Source: an uncultured Clostridia bacterium
Lineage (GTDB): Bacteria > Bacillota_A > Clostridia > Christensenellales > Aristaeellaceae
Length of the DNA: 9,484 bases
Direction of reading: 5' to 3'
Assembly: GCA_946408865.1 (NCBI GenBank)
Contig: CAMJTZ010000066.1
Span: 1 to 9,484 of the forward strand
Position 1 is the first letter of the stretch, and each line of letters starts with the position of its first letter. The notes under the pieces were generated by a model. It made no database searches. It was not told the origin of the DNA and saw only the letters and a program-made list of their open reading frames with translations. Positions 1 through 7,777 of the stretch are shown here, in pieces. A program made the position numbers and the translations under genes.

Positions 1-268
1 TAACATAGTCAGCGTGGCCGGGGCAGTCCACGTGAGCGTAGTGACGCTTCGCGGTTTCATACTCGACGTGCGCGGTGTTGATGGTGATTCCGCGGGCTTT
101 CTCTTCGGGAGCCTTGTCGATTTCGTCGTAACGCATGGCCTGCGCTTCGCCCTTCAGAGCCAGGGTCATGGTGATGGCCGCGGTCAGGGTGGTCTTGCCA
201 TGGTCAACGTGGCCGATGGTGCCGATGTTTACATGGGGTTTAGTCCGCTCGTAATGTCCTTTTGCCAT
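1..268 (-). CDS. tuf: Elongation factor Tu, N-terminal part (cut by window edge)
   Basis: EF-Tu is the cytoplasmic GTPase that carries aminoacyl-tRNA to the ribosomal A site. The 89 complete codons visible begin [20 protein letters not shown] and match the conserved N-terminus of bacterial EF-Tu. The P-loop GHVDHGKT is at residues 19-26, the switch I segment [14 protein letters not shown] at about 59-72, and the G3 motif DCPGH at 81-85. The ATG at 266-268 is supported by an AGGAGG ribosome binding site at 277-282, 8 nt upstream. The rest of the gene lies left of the window. It follows tRNA-Gly by about 74 nt with no convincing promoter between them, so a shared tRNA-tuf transcript is likely (inference). 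The identification is essentially certain. Confidence 0.98.
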
Positions 269-276
269 TGGGGTTT

Positions 277-282
277 CCTCCT
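277..282 (-). promoter_or_regulatory. Ribosome binding site of tuf
   Basis: A perfect AGGAGG on the minus strand lies 8 nt before the tuf ATG. This fits the very high expression expected of EF-Tu and fixes its start. Confidence 0.9.
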
Positions 283-342
283 CTTGTTATCCTCGCTCAA
301 AAGCGAATGCATATTATTTGCTTCCGAGTCATTGATGCGGGT

Positions 343-416
343 TGGAGCAGGTGATGGGAATCGAACCCACGTGACCAGCTTGGGAAGCTGGAGCTCTGCC
401 ATTGAGCTACACCTGC
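343..416 (-). tRNA. tRNA-Gly (anticodon CCC)
   Basis: Read on the minus strand this is a complete 74-nt cloverleaf. The acceptor stem is GCAGGTG with CACCTGC, the anticodon stem is CCAGC with GCTGG around the loop TTCCCAA, and the T arm contains GGTTCGATTCC. The discriminator is U and the CCA end is encoded. Loop positions 34-36 are CCC, which reads the glycine codon GGG. It lies about 34 nt downstream of the predicted start site of a near-consensus promoter and 74 nt upstream of tuf, so it is probably cut out of a tRNA-tuf precursor. Confidence 0.97.
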
Positions 417-456
417 ATGTTCCGCATCAAGCCTTGAAGACTCGCGAACAAAATTC

Positions 457-485
457 ATTTTATCCGTTTTCCTTTTGTATGTCAA
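457..485 (-). promoter_or_regulatory. Strong SigA-type promoter for tRNA-Gly and tuf
   Basis: On the minus strand TTGACA (480-485) is followed by exactly 17 nt and TAAAAT (457-462), giving 6/6 and 5/6 matches to the consensus. The expected start site is near 449-451, leaving a leader of about 34 nt before tRNA-Gly. The promoter lies wholly within the last codons and stop codon of araC. That stop, TAA at 460-462, is part of the -10 box. Confidence 0.88.
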
Positions 486-1380
486 TAGTTTTGGGGAAAC
501 TGGCCTGCCTCTGAAGCTTTGACCGGCAAGCCTGGCGGAACTGTCCGGGAGTGGTGTTCCGGAGCTTACGGAAATCACGGACAAGGTGGCTGCAGTCGGA
601 ATATCCGGTGTGTTGACTGATGTAGTTCAGATCACAGTCCGTGAACCGAAGATAGTGTTCCACACGATTAAGGCGGACTTTCTCGATATACTCCTTGCAG
701 CTGATGCCGTAGATCTGGTGGAATTTGCGGGCAAACCAGGGATAGCTCAGGCCGCAGTATTCGGCCAGATCCTCGACTTTCAGAGGCTCCTGAATATGCC
801 TGGCGATATGGGCCGGAAGAGTGTAGATCTCCGTGGTCGCCGTATCATTAAAAAAGGGAACGAAACCGGCGTCGATCCACCGGCGGATTACGCTGGTGAA
901 AACCAGATAAAGCAGGGCCCGGATCCGCAGATCGTAGCCATAGTTACGGTTGCGGTATTCCTGGACACACATGTCGATCATGTTGTCCACATGTATTTCA
1001 TGAAGCTCTCTGGCGGTGAAATGCATCGGCATGCCGCTGCGTTCCGCCTCCAGAAGCATTCCCCGCAAGTCCGGCGAATAGGAGGGAAGATCCCCGAACT
1101 GTTCCATATCCAGACGGATGACCTCATAGGATGCAGATTCGCCGGGCTGGCTGTAATCCAGGGAATGGGAAGTCAGCGGATTGAAAAAGATCGCGTCCCC
1201 TGGGGAAAGAATATGGACAGCGCTTCCGCGATGCACTTTCAGGGATCCCTTGTGAACGCGGACGATCTCGCCGTAATAATGCCAGTGCGGGGCGATCGGG
1301 AAGAGGGGATGCTCTGTTGTATACAGGGTGCATTCCACAGACGCGTAAAGCAGGGCATTCTGGAAGCCGTTGTTTTCCAT
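460..1380 (-). CDS. AraC-family transcriptional regulator (internal adapter-like segment)
   Basis: A 306-residue protein with the AraC-family layout. An N-terminal cupin-like sensor covers about residues 25-90, with HWHYYGE at 32-38 and LSPGDAIFFNP at 59-68. A C-terminal double helix-turn-helix domain covers about 190-285; the first recognition region includes LSYPWFARKF (211-220) and the second includes GYSDCSHLVRDF followed by TPGQF. Such proteins bind DNA and usually respond to a sugar or other small ligand; the ligand is unknown here. The ATG at 1378-1380 has AGGAGG at 1387-1392, 6 nt upstream, and lies 13 nt after queA, so it probably shares the ruv-queA transcript. Residues 176-188 (FFNDTATTEIYTL) are encoded by an Illumina P5-like sequence, so the true linker is uncertain. 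The family call is firm, but the integrity of the sequence is not. Confidence 0.9.
   Translation of the reverse strand: MENNGFQNALLYASVECTLYTTEHPLFPIAPHWHYYGEIVRVHKGSLKVHRGSAVHILSPGDAIFFNPLTSHSLDYSQPGESASYEVIRLDMEQFGDLPSYSPDLRGMLLEAERSGMPMHFTARELHEIHVDNMIDMCVQEYRNRNYGYDLRIRALLYLVFTSVIRRWIDAGFVPFFNDTATTEIYTLPAHIARHIQEPLKVEDLAEYCGLSYPWFARKFHQIYGISCKEYIEKVRLNRVEHYLRFTDCDLNYISQHTGYSDCSHLVRDFRKLRNTTPGQFRQACRSKLQRQASFPKTIDIQKENG
817..855 (-). other. Illumina P5 adapter-like insertion inside araC (probable assembly artefact)
   Basis: On the minus strand positions 849 down to 821 match the 29-nt Illumina P5 oligo with a single mismatch at 832. The match runs on through 817 into the read-1 primer part, so 32 of 33 bases agree. 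It is preceded on the coding strand by six T (850-855), as seen when reads run off an adapter end. Its translation, NDTATTEIYTL, is the recurrent adapter-derived peptide seen in contaminated assemblies. The adapter sequence is recalled from memory, not looked up. The araC frame stays open through it, and the one mismatch is synonymous (Thr). Confidence 0.85.
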
Positions 1381-1393
1381 AAAGCGCCTCCTG

Positions 1394-2422
1394 TCAGTCG
1401 ATCAGCATGGCGTCGCCGAAGGAGAAGAAACGGTATCGTTCCTCCACGGCGATTCCGTATACACGCAGCGCCTCCTCCCGTCCGGTCAGTGCGCTGACCA
1501 GCATCAGGAGCGTGCTCTGGGGCAGGTGGAAATTGGTAATCAGGGCGTCCACCGCCTTGATTTTAACGCCGGGATAGATAAAGATGGCGGTATCTCCGGC
1601 GCCGGATTGAACCGTCCCGTCCGGGGAGGAGAATGTTTCCAGTGTGCGGACGGATGTGGTTCCGACGCAGACGATGCGGCCGCCGGCAGCCCGGATTCCG
1701 TTCAGGGTCCGGGCTGCTTCCTCCGTAATCTGGCAGAATTCACTGTGCATCACGTGCTTTTCTGCGTCCTCGACTTTTACGGGGCGGAAGGTGCCGAGCC
1801 CCACATGCAGCAGCACCGGAACAACGGTGATTCCCTTCCGACGGATACGGTCAAGCAGTTCCGGAGTGAAGTGAAGTCCGGCGGTCGGCGCGGCGGCAGA
1901 CCCGTCCTGCTTCGCGTAAACCGTCTGATAGCGGGTGCGGTCCTGCAGCTTTTCATGAATATAGGGCGGAAGGGGCATTTCACCCAGCCGGTCCAGGATC
2001 TCCTCAAAGACGCCGTCGTAGATGAAGCGGACCGTACGTCCGCCGGTCTCCTCGACGTTGCCGAGAATTTCGCAGGTCAGGAGTCCTTCCCCGAAGGAAC
2101 AGCGGGTGCCCGGTTTCAGCCGACGGCCGGGGCGGACCAGCGCTTCCCAGTCCGTCGCGTTTTCCCGGCGGAGGAGGAGCACTTCGACCGGAACGCCGGT
2201 ATCCTCCTTGACGCCGAGCAGGCGAGCGGGGATGACCCGGGTTTCGTTGATAACCAGCGCGTCTCCGGGGTTCAGATAATCAATGATGTCGTAGAAATGC
2301 CTGTGTTCAATGGAATGATCCTTCCGGTGATAAACGAGCAGACGGCTGTGATCCCGGGGCTCCACGGGCGTCTGCGCGATCAGTTCTTCCGGCAGGTTAT
2401 AGTCAAAATCAGCAGTTTTCAT
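1394..2422 (-). CDS. queA: S-adenosylmethionine:tRNA ribosyltransferase-isomerase
   Basis: QueA transfers and isomerises the ribosyl group of S-adenosylmethionine onto preQ1 at the wobble position of tRNAs with GUN anticodons, forming epoxyqueuosine late in queuosine synthesis. The 342 residues are full length for the family. Conserved blocks seen are [10 protein letters not shown] (59-68), MPLPPYI (149-155), YQTVYA (165-170), [11 protein letters not shown] (176-186), [10 protein letters not shown] (206-215), [16 protein letters not shown] (296-311) and the C-terminal [11 protein letters not shown]. The ATG at 2420-2422 is 6 nt after the ruvB stop. Its best Shine-Dalgarno match, GGAG at 2435-2438, lies inside ruvB at a long 12-nt spacing, so translation may depend on coupling to ruvB (inference). 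queA beside ruvAB is a common arrangement in bacteria. No tgt follows here; araC comes next. Confidence 0.97.
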
Positions 2423-2428
2423 GCGGTG

Positions 2429-3457
2429 TCAGATCTCCATCCTGATTTGCGCTTCAGCGGCAGCAGGCATGCTCTTTTTCATATGGGCCCAGGCGGCGGG
2501 AGTGCAGATCCGGCCGCGCGGCGTCCGCATCAGGAAGCCCAGCTGCATCAGATACGGCTCATATACATCTTCAATGGTGACAGCATCCTCCCCGGTGGTG
2601 GCGGCCAGGGTATCCAGACCGACGGGACCGCCGCTGAATTTATCCATCATGCAGCCGAGCACATTCCGGTCCACCTTGTCCAGGCCCAGCTCATCCACAT
2701 CCAGCATGTTCAGCGCTTCGCGCGCGACGTCGCGGCTGATGTGGCCGCCGGCACGCACTTCCGCATAGTCGCGGACGCGTTTGAGCATGCGGTTGGCGAT
2801 CCGGGGCGTTCCCCGGCTGCGGCGCGCAATCTCCAGCAGGCCGTCCTCATCCGCGTCCACATTCAGGATGCCGGCGCTGCGGCGAACGATCTGCGCCAGT
2901 TCCTCCGGCGTATACATCTCCAGCCGGAAAAGCATGCCGAATCGGTCCCGCAGGGGAGCGGAGAGCTGGCCGGCACGGGTGGTCGCGCCGACGAGAGTGA
3001 ATTTCGGCAGATCGACTCGGATGCTCCGGGCGGTCGGTCCTTTGCCGATCATAATATCGATGGCATAATCCTCCATGGCGGGATACAGCACTTCCTCCAC
3101 CTGGCGGGAGAGACGGTGAATTTCGTCTATAAAAAGCACATCTCCGGCATTCAGGTTGCTCAGGATGGAGGCCAGGTCCCCGGGCCGCTCGATGGCCGGG
3201 CCGCTGGTGACGCGGATATTCTGCCCCATTTCGGCGGCAACGATGCAGGCGAGGGTGGTCTTGCCGAGGCCGGGAGGACCGTACAGCAGCATATGGTCCA
3301 GCGCGTCGTGGCGGGAGAGCGCCGCTTCGATATAGATTCCGAGACTGTCTTTCACGGCTTTTTGCCCGACATAATCCCGCAGGCTGCGGGGACGGAGCGT
3401 CTGCTCCACAGCACTGTCTTCCGCCAGGAAGGAACTGTTCATCAATCTGTCATCCAT
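2429..3457 (-). CDS. ruvB: Holliday junction branch migration ATPase RuvB
   Basis: RuvB is the hexameric AAA+ motor that pumps DNA through the RuvA-bound Holliday junction during recombination repair. The 342 residues are of normal length. The N-terminal [12 protein letters not shown] (21-32) is typical. Walker A GPPGLGKT is at 60-67, Walker B LFIDEIH at 108-114, and the conserved [18 protein letters not shown] at 157-174 includes sensor and arginine-finger residues. The C-terminal winged-helix region contains [10 protein letters not shown] and ends with RTPRGR. The ATG at 3455-3457 has AAGGAG at 3464-3469, 6 nt upstream, which overlaps the last base of the ruvA coding region. The gene is 12 nt after ruvA and 6 nt before queA. 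Nothing in it looks damaged. Confidence 0.98.
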
Positions 3458-3469
3458 TGTCTGCTCCTT

Positions 3470-4081
3470 TTACATTCCCGCCATGGCGCGCAGGGCGAGG
3501 CGGATCAGATCCTCCGGCGTGTCCGCCTGGTCGCGGATCTGGCTGATTGCGTTGCGGGCTTCCGTAGAGGAATAACCCAGGGCAATGAGCGCCTCCACAG
3601 CTTCGGAAGCGGAATCGCTGTTTGTGAATACTTCGGAAGCGGATGCCGGCACACTGCCGCCGGAGGCGGAGACGTCGGCCTGCGAAATCTTGTCCTTCAG
3701 CTCGAGAGCGATGCGCTGCGCCGTCTTCTTCCCGATGCCGGGAGCGCGGGAAAGGGCGTTGACATCTCCGAGGAGGATGGCAAGGTTCAGGTCCCGCAGG
3801 GGCATGGAACCGAGGAGGCCGAGCGCGGTTTTCGGGCCGATGCCGCTCACGGAGGTCAGCTGCAGGAAGAGCTCCTTTTCCTCCCGCGTGGCGAAGCCGA
3901 AGAGTTCCATCGCATCCTCCCGCACGGAAAGGAAAGTATGGCACCGCATCTTTTCACCCAGGGCGGGCGCGGCCTGCAGCGTGTTGTTGGAACAGTTGAG
4001 CAGGTAGCCGACGCCGCCGGCCAGGAGGGTGAGCGATCCGTTCAGTTTTTCGCAGACTTCGCCTTCAATAAATGCATACAT
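3470..4081 (-). CDS. ruvA: Holliday junction DNA-binding protein RuvA
   Basis: RuvA tetramers bind the four-way junction and load RuvB. The 203 residues match the three-domain plan. An OB-fold covers about 1-63 (start MYAFIEGEV). A domain with two helix-hairpin-helix motifs follows, SVSGIGPKTAL at about 77-87 and APGIGKKTAQRIALELK at 113-129. An acidic and serine-rich flexible linker covers about 131-158. The C-terminal RuvB-contacting domain (about 159-203) contains EAVEALIALGYSSTEA. The ATG at 4079-4081 has GAGGAG at 4089-4094, 7 nt upstream. The gene sits 13 nt after ruvC and 12 nt before ruvB, consistent with one operon. Confidence 0.97.
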   Translation of the reverse strand: MYAFIEGEVCEKLNGSLTLLAGGVGYLLNCSNNTLQAAPALGEKMRCHTFLSVREDAMELFGFATREEKELFLQLTSVSGIGPKTALGLLGSMPLRDLNLAILLGDVNALSRAPGIGKKTAQRIALELKDKISQADVSASGGSVPASASEVFTNSDSASEAVEALIALGYSSTEARNAISQIRDQADTPEDLIRLALRAMAGM

Positions 4082-4094
4082 GCGGATTCTCCTC

Positions 4095-4589
4095 TTATTT
4101 CATCAGGAACTGGTGCTTCGCCACGCCGGCCTGGCAGTGCGTGATCGCGCAGGCGATGGCGTCCGCCGCGTCGTCCGGGCGGGGAATCTCATCGAGCTTC
4201 AGCAGAAGCTTGACCATCTGCTGAATCTGTTTCTTGTCGGCTTTGCCGTAGCCCGTAATGGCCTGTTTAATCTGCATAGGGGTATATTCGTAAAGATTTT
4301 CGGTATATTCTGCGGCGGCGATGATCGCAGCGCCGCGGGCGGCGCCGACCATCAGCGCGGTTGTCACATTCCGGGCGAAAAAGAGTTCCTCAAACGCCAC
4401 GTCATCCGGCTTGTAAATGGAAAGCAGGTCGCGTACGCCGAGCTGCAGGGTCCGCAGCCGGTTCTGCATCGGGACGCCGGCCTTGGTTTCGATACAGCCA
4501 TAGGCGACCAGCTGCATCCGGCTGCCCTCTGACTTGACGACCCCCCAGCCCATCAGAGCGTATCCCGGGTCGATCCCCAGAACGATCAA
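4095..4589 (-). CDS. ruvC: Crossover junction endodeoxyribonuclease RuvC (TTG start)
   Basis: RuvC cuts Holliday junctions symmetrically as a dimer with a two-metal RNase H-like fold. The 164 residues are normal length. The four acidic catalytic positions are present: D7 in GIDPG, E67 in AFEELFF, and D140 and D143 in RPDDAADA. ITHCQ follows near the C-terminus. The start is TTG at 4587-4589. It directly precedes the conserved IVLGIDPG and has GAGG at 4597-4600, 7 nt upstream; no better ATG is seen. It is the first gene of the ruvC-ruvA-ruvB-queA-araC run, with a promoter about 33 nt upstream. The commonly linked yebC is not next to it; instead a divergent metabolic gene follows. Confidence 0.97.
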   Translation of the reverse strand: MIVLGIDPGYALMGWGVVKSEGSRMQLVAYGCIETKAGVPMQNRLRTLQLGVRDLLSIYKPDDVAFEELFFARNVTTALMVGAARGAAIIAAAEYTENLYEYTPMQIKQAITGYGKADKKQIQQMVKLLLKLDEIPRPDDAADAIACAITHCQAGVAKHQFLMK

Positions 4590-4621
4590 AAAACCGCCTC
4601 TTTTCCGTCTCCGTTACGGTT

Positions 4622-4650
4622 ATGGTAAACGTTCAAATAAAGAATGTCAA
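4622..4650 (-). promoter_or_regulatory. Promoter of the ruvC-ruvA-ruvB-queA-araC operon
   Basis: On the minus strand TTGACA (4645-4650) is followed by 17 nt and TACCAT (4622-4627), giving 6/6 and 4/6 consensus matches. The expected start site near 4615 gives a leader of about 25 nt before the TTG start of ruvC. I looked for a Gram-positive LexA/DinR box of the type CGAAC-N4-GTTCG and found none overlapping it. Confidence 0.75.
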
Positions 4651-4706
4651 GGCGAACAAAAGCCGAAAAAAGCAGGATTCCGGGGGTTCGGGGGCCCGGC
4701 TACCAC

Positions 4707-4741
4707 TTGCGAAAACGGGGGTTTCGTGTACAATGTACAAT
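4707..4741 (+). promoter_or_regulatory. Probable promoter of the mannitol dehydrogenase-family operon, with tandem TGTACAA repeat
   Basis: TTGCGA (4707-4712) is followed by 16 nt and TACAAT (4729-4734), giving 4/6 and 5/6 matches. The -10 lies in a tandem 7-bp repeat, TGTACAA twice (4727-4740), so a second TACAAT occurs at 4736-4741. Each repeat unit contains the palindrome TGTACA. A start near 4741 gives a leader of about 58 nt before the gene at 4799. Confidence 0.6.
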
Positions 4742-4747
4742 AAGGAA

Positions 4748-4770
4748 GTATGGGATCTGATCACCCATAC
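4748..4770 (+). promoter_or_regulatory. Inverted repeat in the leader (operator or RNA hairpin)
   Basis: GTATGGG (4748-4754) and CCCATAC (4764-4770) form a perfect 7-bp inverted repeat around 9 nt. The spacer contains the small palindrome TGATCA (4758-4763). It lies just after the predicted transcription start and 28 nt before the start codon. It could be a repressor operator or a 5'-leader hairpin; the sequence alone does not decide. Confidence 0.5.
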
Positions 4771-4798
4771 GCGACAGAGCGGAAAGGAAGCAGAAAAC

Positions 4799-6397
4799 AT
4801 GAAGCTGACAAACGCGGGACTGCAGCAGGCAAAGGCATGGGAGGAGCACGGCGTACGGCTGCCTTCATACGACCGGGAGGCCATGATCCGTGCGACGGCA
4901 GACGCGCCAATATGGGTGCACTTCGGCGCGGGGAACATCTTCCGCGGGTTTATCGCGGGACTGCAGCAGCGCCTGCTGAACGCCGGGCTTGCAGATCGCG
5001 GCATCCTGGCGGCGGAAACCTTTGATTACGAGATTATCGATCGGATCTACAAGCCTTATGATTCCCTGACGCTGATGGTATCCCTGAAACCGGACGGCGG
5101 TACGGAGCGGGAAGTTATCGCTTCTCTGGCCGGGGGACTGAAGGCTTCTTCCGCGGAGGAGGAAGACTGGGGCGAACTGAAACGGTTTTTTGAGGCCCCT
5201 TCCCTCCAGATGGTTTCCTTCACCATCACCGAAAAGGGATATGCCCTGCGGGACCTGAAGGGTGCATATTTCCCGGTGGTCCGCGCAGATATCGCGGACG
5301 GACCGGAAAAAGCGCGTCACGCCATGTCCATCGTAACCGCCCTGATGCGGCACCGCTTTGCGGCCGGAGCCGCCCCGATTGCCCTGGTCAGTATGGACAA
5401 CTGCAGCCACAACGGTGAAAAGCTGCGCAGCTCCGTTCTGGAAATTGCCGGGGAATGGGTGAAAGCCGGATACGCGGACAAAGCGTTCGCGGACTGGCTT
5501 GCGGATGAAAGCAAAGTTTCCTTCCCCTGGTCCATGATTGACAAGATCACGCCCCGTCCGGCTCCGTCCATTACCCGGATGCTGACGGACGAGGGATTTG
5601 AAGATATGGCGCCGGTGGAGACGTCGAAGCATACGTTTATCGCGCCGTTTGTCAATGCTGAAATCCCTCAGTACCTGGTGGTGGAGGACCGGTTCCCCAA
5701 CGGGCGTCCTGCGCTGGAAAAGGCGGGCGTCTACATGACCGACCGGGATACCGTGAACAAAACGGAACGCATGAAGGTGACCACCTGTCTGAATCCGCTG
5801 CATACCGCGCTGGCGGTTTACGGATGCCTGCTGGGTTATACGCTGATCGCCGACGAGATGAAGGACGCAGATCTGAAACGGCTCGTGGAGCGGATCGGCT
5901 ATACGGAAGGACTGCCGGTCGTGACGGATCCGGGAATCCTGAGCCCGGAAGCCTTCCTGAAGGAAGTGCTCGAGAAGCGTCTGCCGAATCCTTTTATGCC
6001 GGACACACCGCAGCGGATCGCCTGCGACACGAGCCAGAAGGTACCGATCCGCTTCGGCGAGACCATCAAAAGCCGGATGAAGAACGGCACCGCGGATCAG
6101 CTGGAAGGCATTCCGCTGGCCATCGCCGCATGGCTGCGCTATCTACTGGCGGTGGACGACGAGGGAAAGCCGATGGATGTTTCCCCGGATCCCATGAAGG
6201 AAAGCCTGCAGGAAGCGCTCGCCGCTGTCCGTTTCGGTGAACCGGAGACCGCGGAAGGCGCACTGAAGCCTGTCCTGTCCAATCCTGTGATTTTCGCGGC
6301 GGATCTGTACGGGACGCCGCTGGCAGCGAAGATCGAAGCGGCCTTCAAGGGCATGCTGGTTCCCGGAGGCGTCCGGAAATCCTTACAGAAGGTGTGA
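4799..6397 (+). CDS. Mannitol dehydrogenase-family protein, probable fructuronate reductase (D-mannonate oxidoreductase)
   Basis: The 532-residue protein belongs to the long-chain polyol dehydrogenase family that includes mannitol dehydrogenase and UxuB, which interconvert keto-sugars and sugar alcohols or acids with NAD(H). The N-terminal nucleotide-binding segment HFGAGNIFRG is at 41-50. Further family blocks are SMDNCSHNG (198-206), SFPWSMIDKITPRP (241-254) and MKVTTCLNPLHTALA (325-339), which holds the likely catalytic Lys326, Asn332 and His335. The Lys-Asn spacing is one residue longer than I remember for Pseudomonas mannitol dehydrogenase. The ATG at 4799-4801 was chosen because AAAGGAAG precedes it and the family fold starts here. 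The 59 extra in-frame codons upstream cross the promoter and look non-coding. Substrate is unproven: fructuronate, tagaturonate, mannitol or another polyol are possible. argH follows after 6 nt. Confidence 0.85.
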   Translation: MKLTNAGLQQAKAWEEHGVRLPSYDREAMIRATADAPIWVHFGAGNIFRGFIAGLQQRLLNAGLADRGILAAETFDYEIIDRIYKPYDSLTLMVSLKPDGGTEREVIASLAGGLKASSAEEEDWGELKRFFEAPSLQMVSFTITEKGYALRDLKGAYFPVVRADIADGPEKARHAMSIVTALMRHRFAAGAAPIALVSMDNCSHNGEKLRSSVLEIAGEWVKAGYADKAFADWLADESKVSFPWSMIDKITPRPAPSITRMLTDEGFEDMAPVETSKHTFIAPFVNAEIPQYLVVEDRFPNGRPALEKAGVYMTDRDTVNKTERMKVTTCLNPLHTALAVYGCLLGYTLIADEMKDADLKRLVERIGYTEGLPVVTDPGILSPEAFLKEVLEKRLPNPFMPDTPQRIACDTSQKVPIRFGETIKSRMKNGTADQLEGIPLAIAAWLRYLLAVDDEGKPMDVSPDPMKESLQEALAAVRFGEPETAEGALKPVLSNPVIFAADLYGTPLAAKIEAAFKGMLVPGGVRKSLQKV

Positions 6398-6403
6398 TTG
6401 AAG

Positions 6404-7777
6404 ATGAAACTTTGGGGCGGACGGTTCGGAAAAGCCACGGACGGGCTGGTGGATGATTTCCATTCCAGCATTTCCTTTGACCAGCGGCTGTTTGAACAGG
6501 ATATTACCGGATCCATTGCGCACGCGACCATGCTGGGCGAACAGGGAATCATACCCGCGAAGGACGCGGAGAAAATTGTGGAGGGCCTGAAGGGAATCCT
6601 GCAGGACGCCCGGGACGGAAAAATCACCTGGCATACCGACGCGGAGGATATCCACATGAATGTGGAGACGCTGCTGACGGAACGGATCGGAGAGGCGGGG
6701 AAACGTCTGCATACCGGTCGCAGCCGGAATGATCAGGTGGCGCTGGATACCCGGATGTACGCGAAGGTTGCCTGCCGGGAAACCGAAGCTATGCTGGAGG
6801 ATCTGCTGAACGCATTGCTGGAGATCGCGCAGGACAATCTGCATACGATCATGCCGGGCTATACGCATCTGCAGAAAGCACAGCCCATTACGCTGGCGCA
6901 TCATATGATGGCCTATGTACAGATGTTCCTGCGGGACCGGAACCGCTTCCGCCAGGCATACGCGGCGGCGGATGTCATGGTGCTGGGATCCGGTGCGCTG
7001 GCAGGCACCACCTATCCTCTGAACCGGGAGCGGGTGGCGGAACTGCTGGACTTTTCCGCGGTATCCGAAAACAGCCTCGACGGCGTATCGGACCGGGATT
7101 ACATGCTGGATTACCTGGCGGCCGCATCCATCTGCATGATGCATCTTTCACGCTTCTGCGAAGAACTGATCCTCTGGAATACGAATGAATTCCGCTTTGT
7201 GGAGATGGATGACGCGTTCTCCACCGGATCGAGCATCATGCCGCAGAAAAAGAACCCGGACGTCGCGGAACTGATCCGCGGAAAAACCGGACGGGTATAC
7301 GGGCATCTGATGGGTTTGCTGACTGTGATGAAAGGCCTCCCGCTGGCTTACAACAAAGATATGCAGGAGGACAAGGAAGCCTTCTTTGACACCCGGGATA
7401 CGCTGGTGAAGGGCCTGACGGTTTTCACCGCGATGCTGAAGACGGTAACCTTCCGGAAGGAAGAAATGGAACGGGGCGCTTCCGGCGGCTTCACCAACGC
7501 CACGGACTGCGCGGATTACCTGGTGAAGAAGGGCGTGGCTTTCCGGGACGCCCATCGGGTTGTCGGAGAACTGGTGGCATACTGCCTGGACAAAAAGAAA
7601 GCGCTGCTGGACCTGAAACTTGAAGAACTGCAGGAGTTCCATCCGGCGTTCGGACCGGATGTGTTTGACGATCTGAGCATGATTTCCTGCGTTGAAAAAC
7701 GGAGAATCCCGGGTGCCCCGGCACCGGAGATGGTGCAGCGCGCCATCGATTCGGCCAGGGAGAAGCTCAGCCGCTGA
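6404..7777 (+). CDS. argH: Argininosuccinate lyase
   Basis: ArgH splits argininosuccinate into arginine and fumarate, the last step of arginine synthesis, as a cytoplasmic homotetramer of the fumarase/aspartase superfamily. The 457 residues are full length and begin MKLWGGRFGK, the usual N-terminus. Conserved blocks are HTGRSRNDQVALDTRMY (103-119), GYTHLQKAQP with His155, SGALAGT (196-202) and the catalytic-loop signature GSSIMPQKKNP (275-285). The ATG at 6404 gives the typical start. An in-frame TTG at 6398, two codons earlier and 5 nt after AAGG, is a possible alternative. It follows the dehydrogenase gene by 6 nt from the chosen ATG, so they are probably co-transcribed. No argG is adjacent, which is unusual but not rare. 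Confidence 0.97.
   Translation: MKLWGGRFGKATDGLVDDFHSSISFDQRLFEQDITGSIAHATMLGEQGIIPAKDAEKIVEGLKGILQDARDGKITWHTDAEDIHMNVETLLTERIGEAGKRLHTGRSRNDQVALDTRMYAKVACRETEAMLEDLLNALLEIAQDNLHTIMPGYTHLQKAQPITLAHHMMAYVQMFLRDRNRFRQAYAAADVMVLGSGALAGTTYPLNRERVAELLDFSAVSENSLDGVSDRDYMLDYLAAASICMMHLSRFCEELILWNTNEFRFVEMDDAFSTGSSIMPQKKNPDVAELIRGKTGRVYGHLMGLLTVMKGLPLAYNKDMQEDKEAFFDTRDTLVKGLTVFTAMLKTVTFRKEEMERGASGGFTNATDCADYLVKKGVAFRDAHRVVGELVAYCLDKKKALLDLKLEELQEFHPAFGPDVFDDLSMISCVEKRRIPGAPAPEMVQRAIDSAREKLSR

What the first reader, a model, noticed from the sequence alone, without database searches (positions are those of the whole stretch)
817..855. Illumina P5 adapter sequence assembled into the araC gene
The coding strand of the AraC linker matches the P5 oligo at 28 of 29 positions, and 32 of 33 when extended into the read-1 primer, preceded by six T. 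The peptide FFNDTATTEIYTL is the familiar adapter translation. A chance match of this length is negligible. Either a chimeric read was assembled in, or real sequence was replaced. The open frame hides the error from gene callers, and the 306-residue protein would enter databases with a false linker. The retained frame and the single synonymous mismatch are the only points against a simple artefact.
Basis: partly seen in the sequence, partly recalled or inferred. Interest (0 to 1): 0.7.

Follow-up and report, generated by a model that had tools for sequence, protein, structure and literature searches.

The report
Sequencing-primer artefact inside an araC gene
Twenty-seven bases of a regulator gene from an uncultured gut-type bacterium appear to have been overwritten by the primer used on Illumina sequencing machines, so nine residues of the predicted protein are not real; the swap keeps length and reading frame, which is why it goes unnoticed.

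Summary
Confirmed artefact. The minus strand at 821-849 matches Illumina P5 at 28 of 29 bases, preceded by six T at 850-855. Relatives show that only 829-855 (27 nt, codons 176-184) is foreign. In an alignment of the window with 30 relatives, none of the 30 has FFNDTATTE there; they share a conserved linker of the same length. Against the nearest fetched genome piece (89.0% over 6364 bases), 829-855 is 22% identical, the lowest of 6338 windows; the next lowest is 59%.

The swap preserves length exactly. T10-P5 blocks do the same in a viral contig compared with nine others, an rmlA gene and an E. coli lac region; two further E. coli cases do not. In the window and lac blocks all seven departures from T10-P5 equal the compared relative's base. 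I infer that surface-bound P5 oligo misprimed at a native GATCTACAC-like site and was read, or called, in register over the real sequence. Which step did it (mixed cluster or consensus) needs raw reads. It is not biology.

The parts
460..1380 (-). araC-family regulator ORF, 306 codons, carrying the artefact
   Evidence: ORF; PF12833, PF00165, PF02311 and PF07883 above their cut-offs; 95-91% full-length homologues
829..855 (-). foreign block: 27 nt, codons 176-184 (FFNDTATTE), replacing native sequence of the same length
   Evidence: 22% identical to L001 where the 6364-base alignment is 89.0%; 9 of 9 residues differ from P0001-P0004; no gap in the alignment with 30 relatives
821..849 (-). P5 match, 28 of 29
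850..855 (-). six T, remnant of the 10-T spacer of a surface-bound P5 oligo
   Evidence: T-runs of 10 or more precede P5 in 42 of 45 viral matches with at least 12 bases upstream; spacer design in PMC11123353 (passages)
832..832 (-). only mismatch to P5; carries the base found in L117
821..829 (-). proposed annealing site of the P5 3' end (GATCTACAC), native-like
   Evidence: L117 has GATTTACAC here, 8 of 9
817..828 (-). native ATCTACACTCTT, resembling the P5/read-1 junction by coincidence
   Evidence: L117 ATTTACACTCTT; IYTL in relatives

Best explanation
Bases 829-855 are an Illumina artefact: surface-bound P5 oligo (10-T spacer plus P5) in place of 27 native bases, in register, so that length and frame are unchanged. 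Shown: the oligo match, the same-length replacement, and a native site resembling the oligo's 3' end in relatives. Inferred: the oligo annealed to native GATCTACAC-like sequence at 821-829 of library DNA and was extended. The confidence below is for the artefact and the in-register replacement, not for the route.
For: 28 of 29 P5 match, next best 17. 0 of 120 listed homologues (446 found) contain NDTATT. Columns 176 and 184 are Q and P in 30 of 30 relatives aligned. 9 of the 14 differences from P0001 fall in the nine residues. Lowest identity of 6338 windows. P5 absent from 398 phylum genomes within two mismatches. Same-length T10-P5 replacement in L027 against nine contigs, in L024 rmlA against two displayed solved relatives and in an E. 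coli lac region. Departures from T10-P5 equal the relative's base in 4 of 4 (window/L117) and 3 of 3 (lac).
Against: No raw reads. The native sequence of this very strain is not held; L117 is 83% identical in protein, and among the lined-up relatives the base at 832 is G only in L117 (L120 has GAA; most others have an Asp codon), with GAG and GAA equally used in this gene (10 and 10). Three of the four window departures are simply a T run of six instead of ten. Among five other cases compared, the hscC case is 2 nt longer than its relative and the yibL-side case is a complete Nextera-type adapter out of register; the lac case lacks a 9-base match at the oligo's 3' end and has one mismatch in 30 bases of right flank. 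In the corrected frame test only 4 of 12 internal viral cases have the same best frame on both sides.
Confidence: 0.95

Rival explanations
1. Same artefact by a software route: reads or contig ends tailed with T10-P5 were aligned to native sequence and won a consensus, contig-merging or polishing step.
For: T10-P5 sits within 60 bases of the upstream end of the fetched stretch in 96 of 113 viral matches, so adapter-ended contigs are common material for merging. The lac and hscC cases are in records labelled complete genomes, where such steps are usual (general knowledge).
Against: In a de Bruijn graph assembly without such a step, the left junction needs reads that span it; whether L027's assembly had such a step was not checked.
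Confidence: 0.35
2. A physical library chimera: an adapter-bearing molecule joined by ligation or PCR, with the matching length a coincidence.
For: Adapter chimeras are described for Illumina libraries (PMC3163567, passages); the yibL-side case carries a whole adapter out of register.
Against: Exact length in the window, L027, L024 and lac would be coincidence four times, and the T run points to a surface oligo rather than a library primer.
Confidence: 0.08
3. Genuine genomic sequence: the linker really reads FFNDTATTE in this strain.
For: The frame is open and the mismatch to P5 is synonymous.
Against: P5 is a synthetic oligo (recalled) and is absent from 398 phylum genomes within two mismatches; the block replaces columns invariant in 30 of 30 relatives and divergence stops at 27 nt.
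Confidence: 0.01

Closest known systems
Illumina adapter contamination of assemblies (P5, TruSeq or Nextera sequence left in contigs)
   Same: Same oligo, with the T-run seen before P5 in viral contigs; adaptors are listed among common contaminants of submitted genomes in PMC10898089 (one passage).
   Different: Most viral matches lie near the end of the fetched stretch (96 of 113); here the block is internal, replaces rather than adds, and carries no read-1 primer or index.
L027-type internal T10-P5 block in a viral contig
   Same: P5 joined directly to non-adapter sequence, same-length replacement, GATCTACAC at the 3' junction in relative L147.
   Different: L027 matches T10-P5 at 39 of 39; the window at 35 of 39.
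AraC-family regulators of uncultured Clostridia (P0001, L001/L117)
   Same: 83-95% identical to P0001-P0005 over the full length, and the same gene order as L001 over 15-6378.
   Different: Residues 176-184.

Membership tests
Illumina P5 adapter artefact | Sequence identity to P5 beyond chance | tested here: met
   28 of 29; shuffles reach 15-19
Illumina P5 adapter artefact | Absent from homologues and related genomes | tested here: met
   0 of 120 listed proteins; 0 of 10 lined-up loci; 0 of 398 genomes
Illumina P5 adapter artefact | Not supported by independent reads | not testable with these tools
   no raw reads; the window's own genome is not held
Surface-bound (flow-cell) P5 oligo as the source | T spacer before P5 and no read-1 primer or index after it | tested here: met
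   T6, fewer than the usual ten; the TCTT that follows is native
In-register replacement at a native priming site | Same length as native, and native sequence resembling the oligo's 3' end | tested here: met
   no gap in alignments; L117 matches 8 of 9
Mixed-cluster origin | Single reads that cross both junctions | not testable with these tools
   needs raw reads
AraC family | AraC-type HTH domain with N-terminal ligand-binding domain | tested here: met
   PF12833, PF00165, PF02311 and PF07883 above cut-off

The most novel reading that the evidence does not exclude
The window shows one case of a distinct, recurrent error class: flow-cell P5 oligo primes inside a cluster at native GATCTACAC-like sites, and the mixed cluster yields reads in which the oligo overwrites the genome in register. 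Such errors keep length and often frame, may be partly mixed with native bases, escape checks based on length or frameshift, and should recur at predictable genomic sites.
Probability: 0.4. Interest if true: 0.45.

Novelty: not a real feature. Interest (0 to 1): 0.22.

Why it matters
A protein with nine false residues in its interdomain linker looks normal: usual length, open frame, domains intact. Matches to the same oligo sit in viral contigs, phage records and finished E. coli genomes, including an E. coli chaperone gene annotated as frameshifted that carries such a block. If the priming idea is right, affected sites could be predicted from GATCTACAC-like motifs and screened for. No biological conclusion should be drawn from the linker of this protein.

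Tried and rejected
Genuine linker divergence: rejected because the nine residues replace conserved columns and spell P5. Insertion: rejected because the length equals that of relatives. Extension into the read-1 primer: rejected because 817-828 is native. The window's own genome is not held. P5 in 398 phylum genomes: none, so no second case near this clade was found. Exact right-flank searches for six internal viral cases found other contigs only for L027 (nine); for L024, L018, L081, L015 and L074 only the contig itself came back. A nucleotide search with L024 gave partial phage matches, none covering 80% of the query; with L015 in plasmids only the oligo part matched.

Frame test: one search was wrong for the reverse strand (it swapped the flanks there) and is superseded. 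In one search the best frame is the same on both sides in 4 of 12 internal viral cases (L018, L027, L033, L074; the left flanks of L033 and L074 are only 89 and 91 bases). L024 is not among them, because another frame is open slightly longer on one side; its case rests on the protein alignment. Seven others are uninformative or differ. One search puts L111, which has only 16 bases after P5, in the TruSeq class by a lax rule; it should count as unclassified.

Full report
What is there. The minus strand at 821-849 matches Illumina P5 at 28 of 29 positions; the second-best place has 17, and the best of 30 mononucleotide shuffles 19. Six T precede it and TCTT follows. The block lies in a 306-codon ORF, 460-1380(-), an AraC-family regulator whose ligand-binding domain matches at residues 23-159 and HTH at 192-283. 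Residues 176-184, between them, read FFNDTATTE. Adapter sequences are recalled; one search shows a 10-T P5-type immobilised primer in PMC11123353 (passages seen).

What relatives show. A protein search gave 446 homologues, 120 listed, the best at 95, 92 and 91% identity over the full length. None of the 120 contains NDTATT. I aligned the window with 30 of the 120; there is no gap at the linker. Column 176 is Q in 30 of 30, 184 is P in 30, 182 is I in 29 and 178 is Y in 28. The window differs from P0001 at 14 of 306 residues, 9 of which are residues 176-184. The next residues, IYTL, are native. So nine codons were exchanged, with none added or lost.

At DNA level the closest fetched genome piece is L001, from goat reticulum MAG RGIG3319. 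It is collinear over window 15-6378 and 89.0% identical over 6364 bases. The 27-base window 829-855 is 22% identical, the lowest of 6338; the next lowest non-overlapping one is 59%. All 45 genomes of the genus of G001 have some AraC match at E up to 0.001, many of them distant. I lined up the DNA of the 10 best at the linker and none has the block. P5 within two mismatches was found in 0 of 398 genomes of the phylum.

The foreign block is 829-855. Bases 817-828 are native: L117 has ATTTACACTCTT where the window has ATCTACACTCTT. The apparent run into the read-1 primer is coincidence. The same native stretch is what the 3' end of P5 could anneal to: L117 matches GATCTACAC at 8 of 9.

How common the oligo is. 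P5 was found in 110 stretches of viral contigs, 113 matches in all. All 113 have C at position 18, although the pattern allowed G. Of 45 with at least 12 bases upstream, 42 have ten or more T directly before P5. A rough script classed 69 as followed by TruSeq, 36 by Nextera-type sequence and 8 by other sequence directly (L111 is misclassed). 96 of 113 lie within 60 bases of the upstream end of the fetched stretch. T10-P5 matched 32 of 50,697 phage records, 3 of 72,556 plasmid records and 4 of 5426 E. coli genomes; several matches are partial.

In-register replacement elsewhere. Viral contig L027 carries all 39 bases of T10-P5. Nine other contigs with the same right flank have native sequence of the same length, and in L147 the last nine native bases are GATCTACAC; the others have one to three differences there. 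In L024 the block lies in a glucose-1-phosphate thymidylyltransferase frame, and both displayed alignments to solved relatives run across it without a gap. In an E. coli lacI-lacZ region the record and a relative are both 836 bases long. Over the 39 positions, lac has 36 oligo bases and 3 others, all equal to the relative; the window has 35 and 4 others, all equal to L117; L027 has 39.

Results against a simple rule. The hscC case is two bases longer than its relative and its gene is annotated as frameshifted, although the relative shares an 11-base stretch with P5. The yibL-side case is a complete Nextera-type adapter, not in register. The lac case has no 9-base match at the oligo's 3' end and one mismatch in the right flank. 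So 3 of 5 cases compared outside the window are in register. The five were chosen by availability of relatives and by leaving out virulence-related and host-range genes. In the corrected frame test 4 of 12 internal viral cases have the same best frame on both sides (superseding).

Mechanism. Shown: oligo identity, same-length replacement, a native site resembling the oligo's 3' end, and departures from the oligo that equal a relative's bases. Inferred: surface-bound P5 primed on library DNA at that site. A mixed cluster explains register, return of native sequence after the spacer, the shortened T run and the base at 832 together. A consensus or merging step that lays adapter-tailed reads over native sequence can explain them too. 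I favour the first at about 0.5 and the second at about 0.35; raw reads would decide.

Literature. Searches for two adapter-derived peptide strings found no paper. The exact T10-P5 string is in one paper. Searches aimed at flow-cell mispriming, internal priming and in-frame adapter artefacts listed no paper whose title or abstract start, as shown, describes in-register replacement. I read passages of five papers only. The library lacks most subscription journals, so this does not show that the effect is unreported.

Verdict. A common contaminant in an instructive, length-preserving form; not a biological feature.

Noticed in passing
NZ_CP010150.1 836444-836482 (L156): T10-P5 match of 37 of 39 inside hscC of E. 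coli D7; the gene is annotated as a frameshifted pseudogene and the compared stretch is 2 nt longer than in a relative.
   Followed up: partly
NZ_OZ040716.1 3735199-3735234 (L157): P5 block between lacI and lacZ of a finished E. coli genome, in register with a relative.
   Followed up: yes
NZ_CP071328.1 3147791-3147827 (L158): Imperfect P5 followed by index-like and Nextera-type sequence near yibL in a record labelled complete genome.
   Followed up: partly
L024:6104-6973: rmlA-like frame in an IMG/VR contig with eleven or so residues encoded by reverse P5 and the spacer.
   Followed up: partly
L018:5141-5179: Internal T10-P5 in a viral contig within a reverse-strand frame open 567 and 491 codons on the two sides; no relative found by exact flank.
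   Followed up: partly
window 1394-7777: Ordinary neighbours: queA, ruvB, ruvA, ruvC on the minus strand, a polyol/fructuronate-type dehydrogenase (below family cut-offs) and argH on the plus strand; tRNA-Gly, -Thr and -Pro elsewhere in the window.
   Followed up: no
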